Shown here in pieces: positions 3,845 to 60,836 of a stretch of 64,000 bases of DNA (the stretch's first letter is position 1; every line of letters starts with the position of its first letter). This stretch comes from Macrotrachela quadricornifera (Eukaryota > Rotifera > Eurotatoria > Philodinida > Philodinidae). The notes beneath the pieces were generated by a model. The model searched no databases. It worked only from the letters and a program-made list of their open reading frames with translations, and had not been told where the DNA came from. The position numbers were made by a program, and so were the translations under genes. The DNA lies in contig JAJEKB010020703.1 of the NCBI GenBank assembly GCA_022393335.1, forward strand, positions 62,001 to 126,000, given 5' to 3'.

Positions 3845-4351
3845 CTAGCATTCTCTTTGAATCTTCGCGTAGAGAGTTCTGTAATTGGCTGTATTTCCAT
3901 TGTATCCGTCGTCGATATGTACCGGATCGGTCTCACTGAAATCTCCTCCCCATCGTAATCCTGTTCTTTTGACAGCATCGATGAAACATTTGACTGCTGC
4001 TGGCTGTGTTTCACCAAGGCAACGACTATTGCATAATGTGTTACTCGTTCCATAGACAACATTCATATCAATAGCATGTCCAATCTTATGGTTGCTGAGT
4101 TGAGCCGGTGGAACAATAGGATTAAGCACAATTGAATCAGGCTTTCGGTACGAATCGGTGATGTACAATTTCACTCCACAATTGCTTGCAGCTGCACAAA
4201 TATTATTCATCGACGATCGAAAGCTTCCATCGATACTCACCGATTTGCTTCCACTGACAAAGCATCCAGTGGATAAATAAGTCTCAATTGGACAAACACC
4301 GTAGGAGACACCTAATGAAACAAGACAGACAAGAAGAGAAAAAGTAAGCAT
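3845..4351 (-). CDS. Secreted M15-family peptidase (peptidoglycan D-Ala/L-Ala peptidase-like)
   Basis: This is a single-exon protein of 168 residues with a hydrophobic signal peptide (about residues 1-18). The zinc-peptidase pattern of family M15 (VanY/endolysin type) is visible: SNHKIGHAID at 86-95 gives the SxHxxGxAxD ligands H88 and D95, followed by W134-GGDF and DPVHID with H145. The family cleaves peptide cross-links of bacterial cell walls. The mature part has eight cysteines, which suits an extracellular disulphide-rich enzyme. A TATATAAG box lies 40 nt upstream of the ATG and an AATAAA signal at 3774-3779. A bacterial origin by horizontal transfer followed by adding a eukaryotic signal and promoter is likely but inferred. 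The role could be digestion of bacterial food or antibacterial defence. Confidence 0.85.
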   Translation of the reverse strand: MLTFSLLVCLVSLGVSYGVCPIETYLSTGCFVSGSKSVSIDGSFRSSMNNICAAASNCGVKLYITDSYRKPDSIVLNPIVPPAQLSNHKIGHAIDMNVVYGTSNTLCNSRCLGETQPAAVKCFIDAVKRTGLRWGGDFSETDPVHIDDGYNGNTANYRTLYAKIQREC

Positions 4352-4383
4352 AGTTGTATTGCGTGATGAAGAAACGAAACTTT

Positions 4384-4391
4384 CTTATATA
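4384..4391 (-). promoter_or_regulatory. TATA box of the M15 peptidase gene
   Basis: TATATAAG on the minus strand, ending 33-40 nt before the start codon. At usual TATA-to-start spacing the mRNA would have a leader of only about 5-10 nt. Confidence 0.6.
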
Positions 4392-15194: not shown

Positions 15195-17731
15195 TTAATA
15201 TACCTTTCCTTTCAAATGCGTGTCGTAGCTGACTCTACATTGAAGCCATTTACGGCATCGTTTCGGCAAACAACAGCAGCACATATCACCTAGTGGTATA
15301 ATCAATTTTGGATCGATCTGATGTGGTTTCAATGGATGAGTTAAGTAAGAAACGATGAGACCGACAAGCACGACAGTAATAACAGCAATTGGTGTGTACC
15401 ACATGTAACTCACCGAATATAAATCGATGAGAGGATCACGTCTAAATAGAAGTGTTGGAGTATTAGAAAAAAAAAATTTGACCATCCAGTCTCTAGTGCT
15501 TCACATTTAAAAACCTTTCCAGTATTGAAACGTCCTCAATAAAAAAATCTTTTTCTGAATGAAACTGTCTTTTGAAGGATCTTACTTTATTGTTACGATA
15601 GTTGTTGTCCACTTTGTTGTCATTTCTTCTACTGTGCCGTTTTCACTATAAGGACAATTGACTATCGACAATGGCAATTGCACACTTGCCATTTGTTTTC
15701 TTGTAATTTGAGCACCCAAAAAGATCCATAGAAGTAAGGCAAGACTAGTCAAGAATCCAGCAAGACCACCATGCTTATTGGCTTGTGGAAAAAAGAAACC
15801 AAGAAAGAAGACACCCATGATAGGACCTTCCAAGACGCCGAACAGAGATAAAGCTGCATTAAGAATCGAACCTAAATAACTGACCACATAGGTAAGTAAG
15901 ATAACAAATGCTCCAAGTACGACTGAAAATATTTTTGATATAAAACCTTGTCTTTGATCACTCAATTGACGACCCATTAATCCTTTGTAAACATCTTCGA
16001 TTAGTACTGCTGCTAGACTATTCAATCCGGATGAAATTGTCGATAATGAACCAGAAAAGATACAAGCAAGAAATATACCTGGTAAACCCTTCTTGTCACC
16101 CAATACTTCCATGACAAAATATGGAAAAACTTGATCAACTTCTTCAATTTTTTTAGCTGTATATGGATCACAATCAGCATAATATGCATAGATTACCACT
16201 CCGATCAGACTTGAGATGAGAATAACTAGTGCAGAACATACTGCATTAATAATCAGAGCTTGTTTAGCACCACGTGTAGAACGTATACATATATAACGTT
16301 GTATTAATGTTTGATTAAATCCATATGTAGCAAGAAAATTGAAGGAACCACCGATAAGCACTGACCATATCGTATGCCGAGCACGAGGATCAAAGCTGAC
16401 ACTAAAGTCAAAGAAAACTACCAATATAACACTCCTTCAATATGGTTTTCTATTTCATACTTGTTGAAGACAATCCTTCCACCTTGTGATGCAATCGAGA
16501 ATGTTTTTTTAAAACCACCGAGTGTAATTAGACCTTGAATAATAGCAGCAAGAAGACCAACCATAATCACTACTGCTTGTAGAACGTCAGTCCAAATGAC
16601 TGCTTTCATGCCACCCTAAATGGCAAGATATTAATAATCTCTTATCTATTTATAATTACCACAGAAGAATAAAATGTACAAATAGCACCGATCGAAACAA
16701 CAGAGAGCCAAATGTTTAAACCAGTAGCTAAATAAACTCCATATATAATTCTTTCTTTTTCATAGATTCAAAATTTGTTTACTTTGACTCAGTGCCAATG
16801 CAGGTGCATATAACACAATTGCCATGTAGATTAACTGAACAACAGAAGTACAAATAAAATATATTGCAAGTTAACTCATTCTTACCATAATGGATGAGAA
16901 GGTGAGTGAAACACACATTTGTACTGTTCGATCGAAGCGCTGCTCTAGATACTATAATGCATGTGAAGTTTATTTTTAGAAAATCAATTTAAGAGAAGTA
17001 TACTTCATAAGCACTTGTAAAGTTCATCTCACGAAATTTCGGCATAAATACAAATGCGCTCACAAGTGAAGCGATCGTCACCGTAATAACTATCAATAAA
17101 TAAATACTAAGTTAATGATGATGAATAAAAATCCAACATTCTTTTGTGAAACACGACTTAAAAGGAGTGTTAAAGTTTAAAGGTAAAAATTTGCATTCAC
17201 TCCCCTGACCCTTTCCTTCACTGACCGTGACCGACAGATTAGGGTAGCGTTACATAGTCTGGCCGCTTACTATTCTAGTATGGACTGTAATATATAGAGG
17301 ACTAAAGACCATTGTACAAACTTAATTGAACAACCATATCCTGCAGAGATTACGCTAATAGCTTTTTACCTTGGTAACAATACATAGTACCGAACAAGTA
17401 AATTTCACTCGGTGTTCCCAATAAAGTAATGGCTGAAAGAAATGAAACTGCGATACTAAGTGCTGTTGGAAAGACCTATGCAGATTTATAGAAAGAGTTG
17501 TATATAATCATCTATTTCTACTTACTCCCATGGTTCCATCAGCTGTAAAATAATGGGAAGATATATATTAACACTTGAATATGAAAGTGAAGTAATCATA
17601 CCTAGAAGAAACTCTTTCGCTGAGCTTCGTTTCGATTTGAAAAATCCAAATATCACACCAATGACAGCTGAAGAGAGAAGAAGCCCCACAAGAAGAACAT
17701 AATCAACAGCACTCAATGTATGTGTTGCCAT
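15195..17731 (-). CDS. Sodium/solute symporter, SLC5 family (sodium-coupled monocarboxylate transporter type)
   Basis: Ten exons join in phase to a 580-residue protein: 17731-17602, 17542-17526, 17475-17370, 17089-17004, 16951-16886, 16834-16783, 16727-16660, 16615-16461, 16401-15586 and 15441-15195. The N-terminus (TLSAVDYVLLVGLLLSSAVIG) is the first membrane helix. Then come SAITLLGTPSEIYLFG and YLEQRF, a typical SSF signature zone, GGSFNFLATYGFNQTLIQRY, and ACIFSGSLSTISSGLNSLAA, all hallmarks of SLC5A8/12-like carriers that import lactate, pyruvate or iodide with Na+. A conserved SYMWYTPI helix and a cysteine-rich cytoplasmic tail (MCCCCLPKRC) close it. Length equals the family norm, with no lesions. 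Exon 2 is only 17 nt. Intron 3 (280 nt) is longer than the others and may hold an insertion. The substrate cannot be fixed from sequence alone. Confidence 0.92.
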
Positions 17732-20075: not shown

Positions 20076-21515
20076 TCAGTTATTAGCACAAAAACTTCCT
20101 TCGGCAGCATCATTTTCGAAACATGGAAAGTTCATTTTGAATTGAGACACTAAAGCTCGAAGAACAGATTTTGCAGCACCATCAGCCCAGGTGGCTCGAT
20201 TTAGATAATACGCTTCACCAACCATTGTTAATGCTTGGCGGTTAAATCTCGGTAGAGGATTTAAAGCCCATTTAGTAATGTCTTGGTTGGTAACAGTACT
20301 ATTAGGACGTTGGAAATGCCAAGCACTTGGCCAGACTTTAGGGAAGGTTCGTAATGGTCTAGGAATATTGACATCTGGAAAAAGTGATTGAAGACCTCGT
20401 CTTATCTCTTCAATAAGATCATCAGATGATGATCTAAGAATATATTCTTCCCATACACCAACACATGCACTATCATCATAAACTGATCGAGTCAAATTTT
20501 CACCATGACCATCAGGACGCTGAACGGATAGAACTTCAATAAAATTAATACAGTTTTGACGTGTCCAAGCACGATCAAGAGAACCTAATGGTGAAACTAA
20601 TTGTGTTTCTTCCCACCATCTTCTGGGCCAGTAATTATGAATTGTAATCATTTTAATTGGTAAAATTGCTTGGAAATATGGTGAAGATTTAATCTCTTGT
20701 GCTACAGAACCTACGATGTTTTGCCAACCATATGGATCAATTGCGGATATAATCTGTTTAGCACGAATTTTATATCTTGTTGTTTCTACAGAAAATACAA
20801 AGCTGGCATCATCATTTTCAGTATAATCTTCAACTCTTAACACTTCTTCAGTTAAATACAATCGAGCATTCAATTTTGTTGTAGCATTGAAAATCATTCG
20901 TTTTGAAAACTGAGACATTCCACCATGTGGATAGAGAATGTCTCCACCAACATCAAATTCTTGACTAAGAAATTTCATATAAGCTTTAGGATGTGTATCT
21001 TGAAAATCAGATCGAAAACGAAACGAATCACGCAAATATTCAGTCACTTCATCGCCAAAAAGCGAACGTGCATATGCATTAATACAAGGGGGAAAAAGCG
21101 GATCCTTGGATCCTTGGTTCCTCGTGGATCCTCATGGATCCTTGGATCCTAATGGATCCTCGTGGATTCTTGGATCCTTCTGGATCCTACGATAAAACTA
21201 ATATATTTTAATGATACTACGTCAAGGAAGAGAACGCTGTACCTGTATCGTTGGATCCACTCGAGCCTTACAAAAATATTGATATGTGTCAATGATACTA
21301 CTTAGTGTTATTAAAATATATTCATTTTATCGTAGGATCCAGCAGGATCCAAGGATCCAAGAGGATCCGTCAGGATCCAAGGATCCATGAGGATCCGTCA
21401 GGATCCAAGGATCCATGAGGATCCAAGGATCCAGGATCCGCTTTTTCCCCCTTGCATTAATAGATGTATGAAAAGAACAACGATACGTCCAAATGTTTTT
21501 TACGACAATTTAGAA
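20076..21515 (-). pseudogene. Flavin-containing amine oxidase, 5'-truncated and split by a transposon
   Basis: The intact 3' frame (21047-20076, 323 residues) carries the substrate and second FAD-binding parts of the amine-oxidase family: YPHGGMSQFSKRM, then KQIISAIDP, and near the end MVGEAYYLNRATWADGAAKSVLRAL, the GE.Y...W.DGA.KS pattern that contacts FAD. Upstream the same frame runs through FGDEVTEYL and NAYARSL to the target site of the insertion at 21085-21454, and continues beyond it for about 16 codons (TYRCSFHTSI) before a TAA at 21512-21510. The N-terminal dinucleotide-binding motif (GxGxxG) is nowhere nearby. So the gene has lost its 5' third and has also been interrupted; it cannot make a working enzyme. 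Confidence 0.8.
21085..21454. mobile_element. 370-bp hAT-type MITE made of GGATCC repeats, inserted in the amine oxidase
   Basis: A perfect terminal inverted repeat of 20 bp or more begins CAAGGGGGAAAAAGCGGATCC and ends with its complement. It is flanked by an 8-bp duplication CATTAATA at 21077-21084 and 21455-21462. Both subterminal zones are packed with the hexamer GGATCC (about 21 exact copies in total), separated by short spacers such as TT, AA, CTCAT and GTCA. The core (about 21192-21340) is itself palindromic, with CGATAAAA..TATATTTTAATGA mirrored. No coding capacity. The 8-bp duplication points to a hAT transposase acting in trans. Confidence 0.9.
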
Positions 21516-22259: not shown

Positions 22260-24153
22260 CTAGAAGGAAAAATTCATTGATTTTAAACGATTAACCACAG
22301 AAGCATATGTAAATTGTAGGACATCATGCGGTGAGGTTTTCCAGCGGCGTCGAATTTCAGTTGAACTTATATCGATTAGATTTTGATGCTCACCACTTAA
22401 AGGTATATAGATAATGTTGGATGATTCATCAAGTGTGGAAATATGCCGATCGTCATATCCTCTACGATATATAACTGCACATTTTATATATTTTTCTTTA
22501 GCCAAGCGTCTAATTTCTGAACTTTTGTTGAAATGATCCAGACCACAAACATAAATCACATATAATGGATTTTTGAAAAATCGATTAGATACTAGAAGAG
22601 TCGAATTGAGATATTGACGAAGTGCAATTGTTGTTGGAGCAAAATCGACAAAACCATTATAATATTCAGCTTCAGCTCGAGACACGCTAAGCCAATGGGA
22701 TTTTCCTGTTTCACGCTCATGTTCTTCTATTGCCAATTCACAAAGATCACATCGATCATGACCTGCTATGGTTGATTTGCCTAATTTACCACGGACATAT
22801 GAATCACTAAACATAATAAACAATAAAAAGTGATGATTAATCACATTATCAGATAAAAAATTACTGAGTAGGAGAAAGATAACCTGCAAGTACATTCCAT
22901 CGTGAATTACTTTGTTTAAGATAATTCTTGACTTGTTCTAAATTGTTGATGTGTGAACGGTGGATAGGATTTAATGAACCAGTTGTTAACAACACACAAC
23001 TAAGATGAATTAGAGAATAATAGAGTATATTTAGGAATGTTTATTGAATTATACTTATATGGATAATCCCATGCTTGATACTCACTACATCGTTTCATTA
23101 GATTTCTAACATCTGTATTTCTTTGATTAAAAAGACCTGGAACAATGATGTCTTGCCATTCCTTTTCAAAATCATTACGTTCTGCATCTGTTACTTTGTT
23201 TTGATGCATTGAATCACTTGGCAGAGCATTCCGTTCATCCCCTTAGTAAAAGCGAAATATGGTTAGGTGAGAAACTTCAATAAGAATATGGACGAATCTA
23301 TAGAAGTGTAGTTTATGGCAAAGATTAAACTGATACCGATGGCCTAACAGCTGACTAACAATCAACTGCTCCCTCTTGTTTATTTTTCTAGTTTCATTGC
23401 CCAAACTGACTCAAAATCTTTATTGCTTCTCGATGATACTTCATGAAAAATATATTAGCAAGTTATTTCTTCCACATTCACATCCTATCCTCACAGAAAT
23501 TGCGCTAAAAAAATTTTTGTAAAAAGCTAAATTTATGTACTGATCGTACTCTTACCTCTCTCTAATATAACATTTCCTTTTACGTCTGTATCATGCTTTT
23601 TGTTCATATGATTGCTATGATCTGGTTTTATTTTCGGATTTGACGACCATTTTTCGATTAATTTCCATAAATATCGAATTGAGTATGAACGTTCTTGTTT
23701 ATCTCTTTCATCAAGTATTACTTTCTTATAAATTTCAATATACTTAGCTATCGTTTTATCTTGACGGCCGTTTACGATGCAGATTACAGGTACTTTACCA
23801 CCGCAAATAGTAGAGACAATGAAACAAAAGTTAGAAAAGGCTGTTTCATTCAAAATATCGTTATTGGCAATAAATAAAATCAAATGGATTCCACTAATGA
23901 TGTAATTATTCAGTTGGTTCCAAAGCAATGGTTGTTGATCCTGGCCATTCATGCGCAAGTCCAGTTTGCTAAGTATAGTTCCATATATAAATAAATACAC
24001 ACAATCATCACGTATACAAGGGTTAATATGGATAAAGTCAGGCTGCGAATTATGCATTACATATTGCTCTTGTCCACATTGATATACAAGTTCCTTTATG
24101 ATGCCTAATTTAGCATCATTTGTTGCATCAATGACAAGGATTTGTCGATACAT
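22260..24153 (-). CDS. GTPase-like domain fused to an NMN adenylyltransferase (NMNAT)-like domain
   Basis: Four exons join in phase to 488 residues: 24153-23556, 23241-23055, 22999-22865 and 22806-22260. The C-terminal half matches NMNAT/nucleotidyltransferase motifs in order: GSLNPIHRSH (the GxFNPxxxxH nucleotide loop), GYLSPTHDSYVRGKLG (compare GxxSPxxDxYxKxxL), HRCDLCELAI-like and WLSVSRAEAE segments, VCGLDHF, and ISSTEIRRR (the ISSTxxR signature). The family joins NMN or NaMN with ATP to make NAD or NaAD. The N-terminal about 190 residues read like a P-loop GTPase fold (ILVIDATNDAKLG, then GIHLILFIANND and VPVICIVNGRQD), but the GxxxxGKS loop is missing, so nucleotide binding there is doubtful. 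Intron 1 is 314 nt, longer than usual. If that splice is wrong, two separate genes would be the alternative. No lesions seen. Confidence 0.75.
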
Positions 24154-26096: not shown

Positions 26097-26840
26097 AAAC
26101 ACTGGTTAGCAGATAATGACCCTCGGGCATCAGCCTTCGCTATTGCCTTTTATACGGGTTCTAGAAGTGAAGCATGTAGTCGAGGCGCCAGTCTTGTTGC
26201 TCGTCGTGCCAATGGTGTAGTTGTCGAAGAAAGAACTGCAGATGAAATGAAGAAAGCATCGATCATTCTATATTATTTAATTAAAGGTCTTTCGAATATT
26301 CCTTATTACTGGGGTTATGTTACACAAGCCTGTCAGCTTAAAGATCATGAAGTGGAACTTTATTCACCTGGTGCTTTAATAACATGGCTTCAGTTTAGTA
26401 GTTCTAAACGAGGCACAAATGTTGCTGAAGGTGGTGGCTTTGAGCTTTGGATGGACGATCAAATATTTGATGAAGAGTGGGAGAATAAATGTGCAGCTGC
26501 AAAGGCACTGAATTTGAATGTATACTTTATTTCAAAATCAACTACTGATTACACAATCTCTTTTCTTAAATCACCTTTCGGACAGTGTTTAAAAAGCAAA
26601 GATACATTTCGTATTGTTACTGACATGAATCGTAAAAATGAACAATCCTCACACAACGCAGGAGTACGTCTAATCAAAAGATTAAGACAACTTGGCTTCG
26701 AAAATCAAACTATGGTTTTTACAAGTCATCAGCGGAAGGCAGACGAAATTATGTCAAAGGAGCTAACTGCTCAAGAATTACGAAATACAATCGTTACAAC
26801 AAGTACACAGGATTTAAGACGTTTTATTAATTTTCAATAG
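26097..26840 (+). CDS. ADP-ribosyltransferase-like fragment fused to a receiver/TIR-like domain (5' incomplete)
   Basis: An open frame without its own ATG starts after an AG at 26096 (HWLADNDPRASAFAIAFYTG) and runs 247 codons to TAG; the first ATG is at 26247. Residues 1-105 resemble arginine-type ADP-ribosyltransferases (AFYTGSRSEA, then a Y-rich IPYYWGYVT, then GALITWLQFSSSK as the FsSts strand). The catalytic arginine place reads YYWG instead of a YRG-like motif, and the ExE strand is absent, so activity is unlikely. From about residue 115 a second alpha/beta domain follows, with an acidic pair (FELWMDDQ), IVTDMNR, MVFTSH and a final FINF, spaced like a response-regulator or TIR fold. An upstream exon with the start may be missing or lost, so this could be a pseudogene. 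Confidence 0.6.
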   Translation, partial: KHWLADNDPRASAFAIAFYTGSRSEACSRGASLVARRANGVVVEERTADEMKKASIILYYLIKGLSNIPYYWGYVTQACQLKDHEVELYSPGALITWLQFSSSKRGTNVAEGGGFELWMDDQIFDEEWENKCAAAKALNLNVYFISKSTTDYTISFLKSPFGQCLKSKDTFRIVTDMNRKNEQSSHNAGVRLIKRLRQLGFENQTMVFTSHQRKADEIMSKELTAQELRNTIVTTSTQDLRRFINFQ

Positions 26841-40621: not shown

Positions 40622-40660
40622 AAGAATTGGTAAGCATACAAAGCACACATTATTTTAAAA

Positions 40661-43162
40661 ATGCTTCGAATCAAACAAAACTCAGAAGTAGCTATTAAAC
40701 ATTCGGAAGAACAACAGTACGTGCCTCTGAAAAGAGTGAATATTGAAGCTACTATTCGATCATTTGCTGCCGATATAAAGATTACTCAAATATTTCGAAA
40801 TGATGAAAAAACTTCAATTGAAGCAGTCTTCTGTTTTCCTATTGAAGAACAAGCAGCTATTTATGCATTTGTGGCACGTATAGATGATCGTGAAATTATT
40901 GCTCAATTGAAAGAGAAGAATAAAGCTCAGCAGGAGTATACAGAAGCACTCGAACAAGGTCATGGAGCTTATTTACTTGAACAAGATGAAAAATCGCAAG
41001 ATAATTTCATTATCAATGTTGGTGCTCTTCCACCTGGCAAAGAATGTGAAATTACTATTTCATATGTCTCGGAATTGGATCTAGTTGAAAATGGTACTAA
41101 AATTCGTTTTGTTGTTCCAACAACCATTGCACCTCGCTACAATCCTGATAAGGGTGGAATCAGTTCACCAGCTGGTACTACCTCTAAATATGTTCAAAAA
41201 AGTTCATACACTATTGGATTTCAATGTCAAATTGAAAAAGTAGGAGTCGCTCGTATTAGTTCAGTATCTCATCCAATTAAAGTAGACCTCGGCAATCAAG
41301 ATGCTTATGTGATTACATTTGCCCAAGAGAATACTCATTTGGATCGTGATATTATTGTTGATATCGAGCTAAGTAAGAATCGATTGAATACGATTGTTGC
41401 TATTGAATCTGGTGCAGTAATGGCTTCATTTACACCGAGTGAAGAAGATTGTCAAAAAGCTGTGAATAATGTTGAAACTATGAATGAATTTATTTTTATT
41501 GTTGATTGCAGTGGATCAATGGAAGATGAAGGAAAAATTGGTCTGGCTCGTCAAGCCATGTTACTCTTTCTCAAAAGTCTTCCAGTCAATTGTCAATTCA
41601 ATATTGTTCGATTCGGTTCTACTCATCAGACTTTTTTTAACGAGATTACTAACATCTATGATGAGAAGAATGCTGAAAAAGCTGAAGGATTAATTAACAG
41701 AATGAAAGCCGATTTGGGTGGTACTGAACTGGTAAGTATACCTTCTTCCTTCATTTTTTATTTATTTATCACAATGATTGTTCTCTTTTAGTTGAGCCCT
41801 CTTCAATGGCTTGAAACAAATCGTCCAGCTCATGGTCGTGCACGTCAAATTTTTCTACTTACCGATGGTGAAATTTCCAATGTCGATCAAGTACTCGATC
41901 TTTGTCGTTCAATGGCTACTTCTTCTCGTATTTTCTCTTTTGGTTTGGGTCATTCTCCTAGTCGTTCGCTTGTGAAAGGCTTAGCTCGAGCAACAAATGG
42001 ACGTTTTGTTTTCATTCCACCGAATACCAGTGCCGATGTACATGTCGGTGAACAATTACAAAAGGCCTTACAGCCTTGTATTACAAATGTGCAAGTCAAA
42101 TGGAATTTAGGCACGACAGCATTAATCAATGTGCCAACAAACACACCACCTGTTTATGTTAACGATCGACTTATCGTCTATGCTCTCATTGAAGATAAGT
42201 CTTATGAATTCAATCATAATTCTAGTGTCGAATTAAAGACAGAACAACATCGATTAGGTGAGGCAAATATCACTCAAGTACCCAGTATGAGCAACAATGC
42301 GACAATCGCTCGACTGGCTGCTAAAGCACTTATTCTTGAACTACAGCATTCAAAATTGCCACCATCAACCAATAAGGGCTCACTACAAACTCGATTTCAA
42401 CAACCAGTTGTATCAGAAGATGAAAGTGCAACAATGAAGGAAACTATACAGAAACGCATTATTGATCTGTCACTCAAATATAATATTCTCAGCCCTCATA
42501 CAGCTTTTGTCGGTGTTGAGAAACGACTGAATGCTAGCAATGCTGATATGGTTTTGCGTGAGGTGCCTATTCAAATATCCGCAGATGATCAACATTTAGG
42601 AATACATTCTTCAAGATTTTCTATTCTCACTGCAGGTATGAAGCCCTGCTTTAGACCAATGCCCCAAATGATGATGTGCAATTCGTTAATCAGTTTTCCC
42701 AATAGAGCTGTCTCACACAATGCGGCCAATATCTGTTATCCCATGAATGCTGCCTTCATGGTAGATGATTGCTTCGGTGCTGACGATATGGATGAAGAAT
42801 GTGACTTTCAAGAATTCTCAAGTGTCATCAATCCAAAAGTAAACGAAGACGTGTGGCCGACAGACAATCAAGATATTGTTCGTCATTTGATCAACAAACA
42901 AAAGTTCGATGGCTCCTGGGATTTGGATTCAAAAAGCATTGAAAAATTGACTGGTAAATCGCTGAGTGACTTTCAACAGTCGATAAATAATCAAGTACTC
43001 ATCTCGGGCATTGTCATCATCGTACTTGAAACACGATTTGCTGCGTTTTCGTCCATGTGGCATGGTATCGTACAAAAAGCACGTAAACGTCTCATCGATC
43101 TTCTTGGTAAAGATAGCAACAAACTTGAAAGTTTACTCGAAAATATTCGCAAAAATTTATAA
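40661..43162 (+). CDS. VIT and von Willebrand factor A domain protein (VWA5A-like)
   Basis: Two exons, 40661-41731 and 41792-43162, join in phase across a 60-nt intron (GTAAGT..TTTTAG) to 813 residues. A VIT domain occupies about residues 10-140 (AVFCFPIEEQAAIYAF, then ALPPGKECEITISY). The vWA domain follows from about 275 with a complete metal-binding site: D282-C-S-G-S, the GGT near 355, and LTDGE with D382. The C-terminal 100 residues (KFDGSWDL onward) match the conserved tail of VWA5A/PARP4-type proteins. Length agrees with the family (about 790 residues). These are intracellular proteins of poorly known function, and no signal peptide is present. No lesions. Confidence 0.93.
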
Positions 43163-58595: not shown

Positions 58596-59210
58596 ATCAT
58601 GCGGATAATTTGTTATTTCTGGTAGCAACAACTGCGACGAAAAAAAAGAAATCGTCAAATGTAATACATATACAACACAGTATTGAGCAAATAAGAGAAC
58701 AATGATATTATGCAAATGAAATAAATCTTGTATTGTAGGAATTCATTAATCAATTATTTGCATTTCAGCAATATATTGACTACTGTCAACAAAAGGATAA
58801 GAAAACTGTTGACGAATCAACATAGTTCTATAGTATTTGGTTACATAGATAGTTTTATTTACGCAATATTAGAACATAAGTAAGTAATCATTTAACTGAT
58901 ATCTTAAACTATAGATTAGTTATATATTATCGATGCATTGTACTAAAACATTCACATAGAACAAGATCTATGTGAAAAAAGAAATGTTTTTTTTTGTCGT
59001 TCACTAATGTGTATTACATTTATTAATGATTACTCCGTTCTCTTTTGTAATCTGAGCATGTGTTGTGAAGATAAGAGATACATTTTGTAATATAAAGAGA
59101 ACGAAATAAGTGGTAGACATATTCTCTCTTATTTAATGCATTACACGTAGCCTATCATTTTTTTTCTATTCATTCTTTTTATTTAGTTAAAAACGTTATC
59201 AGTTGCATTA
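58596..59210. other. Upstream region of the amidase
   Basis: No gene. An AG after a pyrimidine tract near 59187 could be an acceptor for an untranslated leader exon or trans-spliced leader, but this is unproven. Confidence 0.35.
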
Positions 59211-60836
59211 ATGGCGATTTCATCTATTCAACGAGTGCGTGAAATTCGAGATGCATCTATTCCTAAGGATAGTTTACTTGGACATTTACTTCCCGATTCA
59301 TCTGTTCTTGATGTGAGTAATATTCCACATCAATGTGGTCTTTTATCAAATGATGAAATTGCTATTACTGAAAATTATTCAGCAACTCAACTTTTAACTC
59401 AATTAGCTCAAGGTCAATTAAAAGCTGAACAAGTTACTAAAGCTTATTTAAAACGAGCTGGTATTGCTCATCAATTAACAAATTGTGCAACAGAATTTCT
59501 TGGTAAAGAAGCAATTGATCGAGCTAAATATTTAGATGAAGAATTAAAAAGACGAGGAAAACCTGTAGGTCCACTACATGGTTTACCAATCTCTATTAAA
59601 GATTATATAACTATGAAAGGTCGACGAACTGATGCAAGTTATATAAAATGGATTGATAGAATCGCTAATAATGATGCTCTTATTATAAAAATTCTTTATG
59701 AATTAGGTGCTATTTTTTATGTTCGTACTACTGGACCACAAACTCTTATGCAATTAGAATGTAATAGTCCTATTTATGGTATTACTGTTAATCCATATAA
59801 TCGAAATTTAACTTGTGGAGGTAGCTCTGGTGGAGAAGGTGCAATTCTTGGTCTTAAAGGTAGTCCATTAGGTGTAGGAACTGATATTGGTGGAAGTGTA
59901 CGTTCTCCAGCTGTTAATAATGGAGTTTATGGATTGCGACCAACAACTTTTCGATTACCAAAAAAAGGTATACTCGGAACACAGCCGGGACGAGAAAGTA
60001 TTATCAGTACAATTGGTCCACTTGCTCATACAAGAGAAGATATTAATCTATTCATGAAAATAGTACTCGATACTGAACCATGGTTACAAGATCCATCTCT
60101 CGTACCAATTCCTTGGAGATCAATCACATTGGAACCAAAGAATTTAACAGTAGCTGTTATGTGGGATGATGGTGTTGTACATCCTCATCCACCCATTACT
60201 CGAGCTCTTCATGAAACTGTCGAACATTTAAAAAGGGCTGGAATTCGAGCTATTGACTGGGAACCAATTGATCATCAAAAAAGTTGGGACTTAATTAGTG
60301 CATTATATTTTTGCAATGGAGCTGAAGAAGAACGAGGTATGATGGTTGAAGTAGGTGAACAGCCACTGCCATTATCAGAATGGATTCTTAATCAACCACA
60401 AGTTAAAAACAGAAATTGGACAGAAATGAATGAATTAATTTCGGAAAGAGAAATGTATCGTAATCGTTATGCACAAACATGGAATCAACGAGAAATATCT
60501 TTTAAATGTTCTATTGATTGTCTTCTAACACCAGCTGGTCCATCAGCAGCTCCTCAACATAATACAGCTAAATGGTGGGGTTATACTTCTGTATGGAATC
60601 TTCTTGATTATCCAGCTATTGTTTTTCCAGTCACAAGTGTCGATTCTGTCAAAGATCAAGTAGAAGTTGATTATAAACCTAGAAATACACTTGATGATGA
60701 AAATTATAAATTATATGTATCACCAGAATCTTATGCTCATGCTCCAATTGGATTACAAGTTGTTGGTCGACGATATCATGATGAAAAAGTGATGAAATGT
60801 CTCGAAATAATTGAACAAGCCATGGGAAGAACATAA
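59211..60836 (+). CDS. Amidase-signature enzyme (acetamidase/fatty-acid-amide-hydrolase-like)
   Basis: A single exon of 541 residues with the full amidase signature. GLPISIKD holds catalytic Lys130, GGSSGGEG holds the cis-Ser205, and GTDIGGSVRSPA holds the nucleophile Ser229. Spacings 75 and 24 equal those of the known Lys-Ser-Ser triad. The enzyme hydrolyses carboxylic amides to acid and ammonia. Length and the C-terminal WWGYTSVWNLLDYPAIVFPV segment fit fungal acetamidase-type enzymes (about 540-550 residues) better than short bacterial ones. The lack of introns beside intron-bearing neighbours, and the fungal look, suggest horizontal acquisition (inference). No signal peptide, so cytosolic. 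AATAAA at 60924-60929. No lesions. Confidence 0.93.
   Translation: MAISSIQRVREIRDASIPKDSLLGHLLPDSSVLDVSNIPHQCGLLSNDEIAITENYSATQLLTQLAQGQLKAEQVTKAYLKRAGIAHQLTNCATEFLGKEAIDRAKYLDEELKRRGKPVGPLHGLPISIKDYITMKGRRTDASYIKWIDRIANNDALIIKILYELGAIFYVRTTGPQTLMQLECNSPIYGITVNPYNRNLTCGGSSGGEGAILGLKGSPLGVGTDIGGSVRSPAVNNGVYGLRPTTFRLPKKGILGTQPGRESIISTIGPLAHTREDINLFMKIVLDTEPWLQDPSLVPIPWRSITLEPKNLTVAVMWDDGVVHPHPPITRALHETVEHLKRAGIRAIDWEPIDHQKSWDLISALYFCNGAEEERGMMVEVGEQPLPLSEWILNQPQVKNRNWTEMNELISEREMYRNRYAQTWNQREISFKCSIDCLLTPAGPSAAPQHNTAKWWGYTSVWNLLDYPAIVFPVTSVDSVKDQVEVDYKPRNTLDDENYKLYVSPESYAHAPIGLQVVGRRYHDEKVMKCLEIIEQAMGRT

What the first reader, a model, noticed from the sequence alone, without database searches (positions are those of the whole stretch)
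22260..24153. GTPase-like/NMNAT-like fusion gene
Four exons join in phase to place a GTPase-like fold without a P-loop in front of a domain with the ordered NMNAT motifs (GSLNPIHRSH, GYLSPTHDSY, VCGLDHF, ISSTEIRRR). NMNAT enzymes are normally stand-alone or fused to Nudix or kinase domains. A pseudo-GTPase partner would be unusual and could couple NAD synthesis to a regulatory or immune module. Both domain calls come from motif reading.
Basis: partly seen in the sequence, partly recalled or inferred. Interest (0 to 1): 0.75.

Follow-up and report, generated by a model that had tools for sequence, protein, structure and literature searches.

The report
Dead-GTPase fused to NAD-making-type enzyme
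A rotifer gene joins a worn-out GTPase-like domain to an enzyme domain of the kind that makes NAD, and the NAD-using enzyme that lies beside it is fused to the same enzyme domain in other rotifers, which points to an undescribed link between making and spending NAD.

The parts
22260..24153 (-). Gene for the 488-aa pseudo-GTPase / NMNAT-like fusion
   Evidence: Open spliced frame; five further copies in the genome with the same exon structure, one of them with an in-frame stop; 60% full-length homologue in R. socialis
23556..24153 (-). Exon 1 (598 nt): N-terminal pseudo-GTPase domain, residues 1-199, modelled elements within about 2-170
   Evidence: Model; Foldseek/VIA; hhalign
24106..24132 (-). 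Degenerate G1/P-loop position, IDATNDAKL (residues 8-16), where a P-loop relative has IGSTGEGKS
   Evidence: MAFFT alignment with P-loop relatives
23242..23555 (-). Intron 1 (314 nt, GTAAGAGT...ACTAAG); same position and phase in all six copies, length 314-4161 nt
23055..23241 (-). Exon 2 (187 nt): linker and pre-NMNAT segment (NTDVRNLMKRC), with counterparts in front of ART-fused (P0004) and stand-alone (P0014) NMNAT domains
22865..22999 (-). Exon 3 (135 nt): TTGSLNPIHRSH nucleotide-binding motif of the NMNAT domain
22260..22806 (-). Exon 4 (547 nt with stop): rest of the NMNAT domain (SPTHDSYV completed, VCGLDHF, ISSTEIRRR); the position of human Trp92 is Ala (SRAEAEY)
26106..26834 (+). Decayed ART (arginine ADP-ribosyltransferase) gene, head-to-head with the fusion gene, first match 1953 bp from its start codon; lacks the part matching P0004 1-182 and the stretch with EDEVLFLPHS that the B1 copy has
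   Evidence: tblastn with P0004/P0008; Pfam finds no family in this remnant but ART in the B1 counterpart

Best explanation
It is one real gene of a bdelloid rotifer family. SHOWN by computation: the frame, the splice structure kept in six copies, an NMNAT-type adenylyltransferase domain at the C-terminus with its nucleotide-site motifs kept, and an N-terminal domain homologous to AIG1/GIMAP-like P-loop GTPases whose G1, G3 and G4 motifs have degenerated. INFERRED: the N-terminal domain no longer binds or hydrolyses GTP and works as a protein-interaction or targeting module (as in known pseudo-GTPases) that places or regulates the adenylyltransferase; the enzyme joins AMP from ATP to a mononucleotide, NMN/NaMN or a close analogue, and so feeds or balances NAD-consuming ADP-ribosylation by ART enzymes, one of which is (or was) encoded head-to-head beside it, the same pairing that other bdelloids fix as one ART-NMNAT polypeptide.
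Against: No expression or biochemical data. Two A. steineri models (P0002, P0026) start at the Met that aligns to residue 248, i.e. without the front half. Only 2 of the 62 proteins found have both parts, both from Rotaria. The position of the Trp that flanks NMN in human NMNATs is Ala or Gly in 20 of 20 bdelloid-clade rows, so NMN may not be the substrate. In the window's own pair the ART is decayed, so this copy cannot serve that ART; at C2 no ART was listed on the contig (56 of 142 candidates scored) and at B2 the contig ends too early. The three gene pairs share ancestry, so the conserved neighbourhood is one event kept, not several. The N-domain model rests on 4 sequences and is of moderate confidence; its Foldseek TM-scores are about 0.5.
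Confidence: 0.55

Rival explanations
1. Two genes, or two isoforms: a short pseudo-GTPase protein ending just past exon 1 (stop at 23533-23535 in the window) and an NMNAT-like protein that starts at Met248 in exon 2.
For: A. steineri models P0002 and P0026 start exactly at the Met aligned to residue 248, as does the more distant R. sordida P0037. In three N-only proteins (P0013, P0028, P0034) the read-through past exon 1 is as similar as the domain itself (29/35 against 179/212; 31/41 against 149/199; 26/33 against 160/199).
Against: Donor and acceptor are kept in phase in all six copies; the read-through tail differs among pairs A, B and C of this genome; intron 1 differs by 97 nt, not a multiple of three, between pairs A and B, with 157 gap columns A1 against B2 where the exons have none; the R. 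socialis model joins the parts. The N-only proteins look like unspliced ORF calls (inference), and for P0013/P0028 the stretch upstream of the Met is similar too (11 of 13 by eye), so the tail similarity does not prove coding.
Confidence: 0.2
2. The C-terminal domain has lost NMNAT activity or changed substrate (another nucleotide or nucleotide-like ligand), and the gene has nothing to do with NAD.
For: The Trp92 equivalent is Ala/Gly in 20 of 20 bdelloid-clade rows, Trp in 7 of 7 outside rows (alignment to human); Trp92 and Trp169 lie at the NMN site (PMC12606303, passages). The score for the NadD equivalog model is 39 bits against a cut-off of 112.45.
Against: Nucleotide-site motifs and the fold are kept; omega is 0.20-0.30 between pairs; the domain is fused to an NAD-using type of enzyme, ART, elsewhere. 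The Trp is not universal among NMNATs: the Chaetomium enzyme has Tyr there.
Confidence: 0.3
3. An ordinary gene-family oddity: random domain fusion by duplication and shuffling, kept passively, with no coupled function.
For: NMNAT-like domains occur in other odd annotated combinations: U-box/kinase (P0012), ankyrin (P0017), forkhead (P0016, perhaps a chimeric model); one B copy carries an in-frame stop and the window's ART is decayed.
Against: omega 0.20-0.45 between gene pairs in both halves; the architecture is found in this genome and in two Rotaria species.
Confidence: 0.2

Closest known systems
Eukaryotic NMN/NaMN adenylyltransferases (human NMNAT1 and 3; Arabidopsis and Chaetomium enzymes, PDB 9rpk/9rpm, 9iw1)
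AIG1/GIMAP-type GTPases
   Same: G-domain fold, GIMAP2 is the first Foldseek hit; homologous to P-loop GTPases of the same genome, of which the one scanned passes the Pfam AIG1 cut-off
   Different: No P-loop, no DxxG, degenerate G4; no Pfam AIG1 match of its own; VIA ranks Rab/Rho/Ras chains highest, so the GIMAP kinship rests on sequence more than on the fold ranking
Pseudo-GTPase domains such as pG1 of p190RhoGAP (PMC5593906: abstract, outline and one section read)
   Same: GTPase-like fold thought unable to bind nucleotide, in a multidomain protein that also has an enzyme or regulatory domain
   Different: Different GTPase branch; lack of nucleotide binding was measured for pG1, not here; the partner domain is an NMNAT-like enzyme, not a RhoGAP
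Bdelloid ART-NMNAT fusions (P0004, P0005, P0007-P0011; several named NAD(P)(+)-arginine ADP-ribosyltransferase by their source)
   Same: Same bdelloid NMNAT clade; the pre-NMNAT segment is recognisable in most of them
   Different: ART instead of pseudo-GTPase at the front; in the window's genome no ART place listed with P0004 has a listed NMNAT match directly behind it (56 of 142 candidates scored)

Membership tests
NMN/NaMN adenylyltransferase (NMNAT) | Nucleotidyltransferase fold | tested here: met
NMN/NaMN adenylyltransferase (NMNAT) | GxFxPxH/TxxH-type and ISSTxxR motifs in order | tested here: met
   GSLNPIHRSH and ISSTEIRR against human NMNAT1 GSFNPITNMH and ISSTKIRR (profile alignment)
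NMN/NaMN adenylyltransferase (NMNAT) | Aromatic residue at the NMN ring (human Trp92) | tested here: not met
   Ala/Gly in 20 of 20 bdelloid-clade rows, Trp in 7 of 7 outside rows (human alignment); so it is filed as NMNAT-like, substrate open
NMN/NaMN adenylyltransferase (NMNAT) | Makes NAD or NaAD from ATP | not testable with these tools
   Needs an enzyme assay
NadD equivalog (TIGR00482) | Score over the curated cut-off | tested here: not met
   39 bits against 112.45
AIG1/GIMAP GTPase | G-domain fold and homology to P-loop GTPases | tested here: met
   controls
AIG1/GIMAP GTPase | G1 P-loop GxxxxGK[ST] | tested here: not met
   IDATNDAKLG in the window, IDSTDDVKSS in R. socialis (alignment)
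AIG1/GIMAP GTPase | Pfam AIG1 gathering score | tested here: not met
   No Pfam hit for exon 1 except DUF2262 at E 0.13, below its cut-off
Pseudo-GTPase | G fold with degenerate G1, G3 and G4 motifs | tested here: met
Pseudo-GTPase | No nucleotide binding (class without binding) | not testable with these tools
   Needs a binding or thermal-shift assay
IRG immune GTPase | IRG-specific kinship | tested here: inconclusive
   No IRG row among those shown; absence from a list excludes nothing

The most novel reading that the evidence does not exclude
Bdelloid rotifers run an undescribed NAD module in which an NMNAT-like enzyme of unusual substrate site is deployed next to, or fused with, arginine ADP-ribosyltransferases, and a dead GIMAP-like GTPase domain recruits it to active GIMAP-like GTPases: local making and spending of NAD (or of an NAD-like product) as a stress or immune response.
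Probability: 0.25. Interest if true: 0.82.

Novelty: new variant of a known kind. Interest (0 to 1): 0.55.

Why it matters
Neither a pseudo-GTPase-NMNAT pairing nor an ART-NMNAT fusion turned up in the openly licensed papers searched (listings, not full reading). NAD supply and NAD-consuming signalling are usually separate proteins (general knowledge); lineage-specific genes that tie them together would let one ask directly whether an ADP-ribosyltransferase is fed, or reined in, by a dedicated NAD-type synthetase, in animals known for surviving desiccation. The absence of the NMN-flanking Trp throughout the clade also makes a testable case for a new substrate.

Tried and rejected
Rejected: chance reading frame (six copies, purifying selection); descent of the N-domain from the other domains at hand (hhalign of it to NMNAT, ART and post-ART segments at or below 0.2%; 20 column shuffles of the GTPase alignment at or below 1.3%, reversed 0.6%); prokaryotic defence family (PADLOC: none for exon 1, P0001 and P0004). 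Led nowhere: the region search for residues 1-200 gave only P0013 (it even missed P0001, so it is word-limited); the scan of viral contigs for a back-translated exon 1 peptide gave 0; IRG kinship not seen in the rows, which excludes nothing. Whether this genome also has an ordinary animal NMNAT stayed open: the whole-genome search with a human NMNAT1 piece did not complete; the same piece run against the 71 loci already held gave the NMNAT-like loci already listed, the best two (L043, L045) of a further type with 35-36% identity. Literature: bdelloid with ADP-ribosyltransferase 0 papers; NMNAT with pseudoGTPase 0; bdelloid with GTPase and NAD 5, listing only; NMNAT with fused and ADP-ribosyltransferase domain 2, listing only; pseudoGTPase with pseudoenzyme and nucleotide binding 8, listing, from which PMC5593906 was opened; rotifer with GIMAP 7, listing only; bdelloid with nicotinamide 13, of which 12 listed, and PMC3499245 searched for three terms, one pathway-table row found; NMNAT with domain architecture and ADP-ribosyltransferase 1 review, listing only; NMNAT with Trp169 or nicotinamide ring 15, 8 listed. 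PMC5593906: abstract, outline and one section. PMC12606303: passages. Other statements on pseudo-GTPases and motif names are recalled.

Full report
WHAT WAS CHECKED. The finding describes a minus-strand gene at 24153-22260. Splicing 24153-23556, 23241-23055, 22999-22865 and 22806-22260 gives an uninterrupted 488-aa frame with GT-AG introns of 314, 55 and 58 nt. The window is part of an unnamed 450-Mb assembly; the closest named proteins are from bdelloid rotifers, so I take the source to be a bdelloid of unknown genus (inference).

THE GENE IS REAL AS A UNIT, AS FAR AS SEQUENCE CAN SHOW. A six-frame search of the genome with exon 1 gave 7 matches: the window, five further copies and one weak match at E 0.66. 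The copies form three pairs by identity: A (window C4285 and C4631), B (C4576 and C2346), C (C4475 and C4074). In all six the NMNAT exons follow exon 1 in order and orientation, exons 1-3 are 598 or 601, 187 and 135 nt, and the three introns have GT-AG ends at the same place; intron 1 is 314, 314, 411, 411, 4151 and 4161 nt (sites in the other copies were located by my script from matching sequence, not predicted independently). Five copies are open to the end; C4576 has one in-frame stop in exon 2. Across different pairs omega is 0.33-0.45 for the N-terminal part and 0.20-0.30 for the NMNAT part; within pairs it is 0.30-0.48 where defined, on few changes. Between A1 and B2 the four exons align without gaps while intron 1 has 157 gap columns. 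R. socialis has a 493-aa protein (named 'partial'), 60% identical over the whole length.

EVIDENCE AGAINST THE UNIT. Of 62 proteins found with the family profile (only the 7993 candidates sharing most words were scored), 2 have both parts (P0001 of R. socialis, P0003 of R. magnacalcarata), 4 only the N-terminal part and 56 only the NMNAT part. Several of the last two groups come from metagenome sets and look like unspliced exons; P0013 and P0027 report the same longest contig length, 6558, so they may be the two ends of one gene (inference). But two A. steineri models, P0002 and P0026, and the more distant P0037 of R. sordida start at the Met aligned with residue 248; P0002 also ends in an unrelated stretch. 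In three N-only proteins the read-through past exon 1 is as similar as the domain (29/35 against 179/212; 31/41 against 149/199; 26/33 against 160/199), which a coding tail or simply close relatedness could explain; in this genome the tails differ among pairs. RNA data would settle it and were not available.

THE NEIGHBOUR. On the other strand, first match 1953 bp from the start codon, lies a decayed ART gene (26106-26834). The same head-to-head layout is found at A2 (1992 bp, decayed), B1 (2760 bp, ART with EDEVLFLPHS kept, one in-frame stop in its early part) and C1 (7498 bp, C4475:410614-412044, letters not read), that is 4 of 6 copies; the B2 contig ends 2.5 kb upstream and no ART was listed on the C2 contig (56 of 142 candidates scored). 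By my count of the rows there are 26 ART-like places, alleles and fragments included, in 450 Mb, so an ART within 10 kb of a given place is expected in about 0.1% of cases; as the pairs share ancestry this is one arrangement kept, not several. Independently, in A. vaga, A. steineri, R. magnacalcarata and R. socialis the same NMNAT domain follows an ART domain in one annotated protein (7 proteins). Those 7 fall, with P0012 and P0016, in a 9-row group (99/99) inside a bdelloid clade of 20 rows (97/94) that also holds the pseudo-GTPase group (8 rows, 95/97); P0003 stays outside that group on an open fork, and the bootstrap had not settled.

MECHANISM. Most likely the adenylyltransferase half makes an NAD-type dinucleotide and the dead G domain gives it an address or a partner, perhaps an active GIMAP-like GTPase, with NAD-consuming ADP-ribosylation as the setting. 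The last two steps are inference from neighbourhood and fusion. In the window's own pair the ART is decayed, so there the link is historical or served in trans by other ART copies.

NOVELTY. Each part is of a known kind; I found no paper describing the combination or the ART-NMNAT fusion in the library searched, which holds only openly licensed papers. I rate it a new variant of a known kind.

Noticed in passing
window 26106-26834 (+): Decayed arginine ADP-ribosyltransferase gene head-to-head with the fusion gene; a fuller copy lies at the B1 locus.
   Followed up: yes
database proteins P0004, P0005, P0007-P0011: Bdelloid ADP-ribosyltransferases annotated as fused to the same NMNAT-like domain in Adineta and Rotaria; one protein would both make and use an NAD-type substrate.
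   Followed up: partly
L054 4848-6287 (C4935): NMNAT-like exon whose open frame of 480 aa runs on into a stretch with LLHDIGKII, recalling HD-domain hydrolases; perhaps another NMNAT fusion.
   Followed up: no
L047/L048 (C4576 against C2346): One copy of pair B has an in-frame stop in the fusion gene and another in the neighbouring ART gene; the C2346 copy of the fusion gene is open to its end.
   Followed up: partly
L049, L050 (C pair): Intron 1 is about 4.15 kb, exceptional beside the 55-58 nt introns, with no ORF of 90 aa or more on either strand wholly within it.
   Followed up: partly
P0012, P0016, P0017: The NMNAT-like domain also occurs in annotated models with U-box plus kinase, forkhead or ankyrin; some may be chimeric gene models.
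   Followed up: no
window 20079-21131 (-), 40634-43156 (+), 59187-60833 (+), 15585-16436 (-), 3848-4384 (-): Other coding stretches by Pfam: amine oxidase, VIT/VWA, amidase, sodium:solute symporter, M15 peptidase.
   Followed up: no
G000:C3972:37568-37924: An NMNAT-like match reported inside an open frame of 16834 aa; perhaps a run of N read as open, not checked.
   Followed up: no
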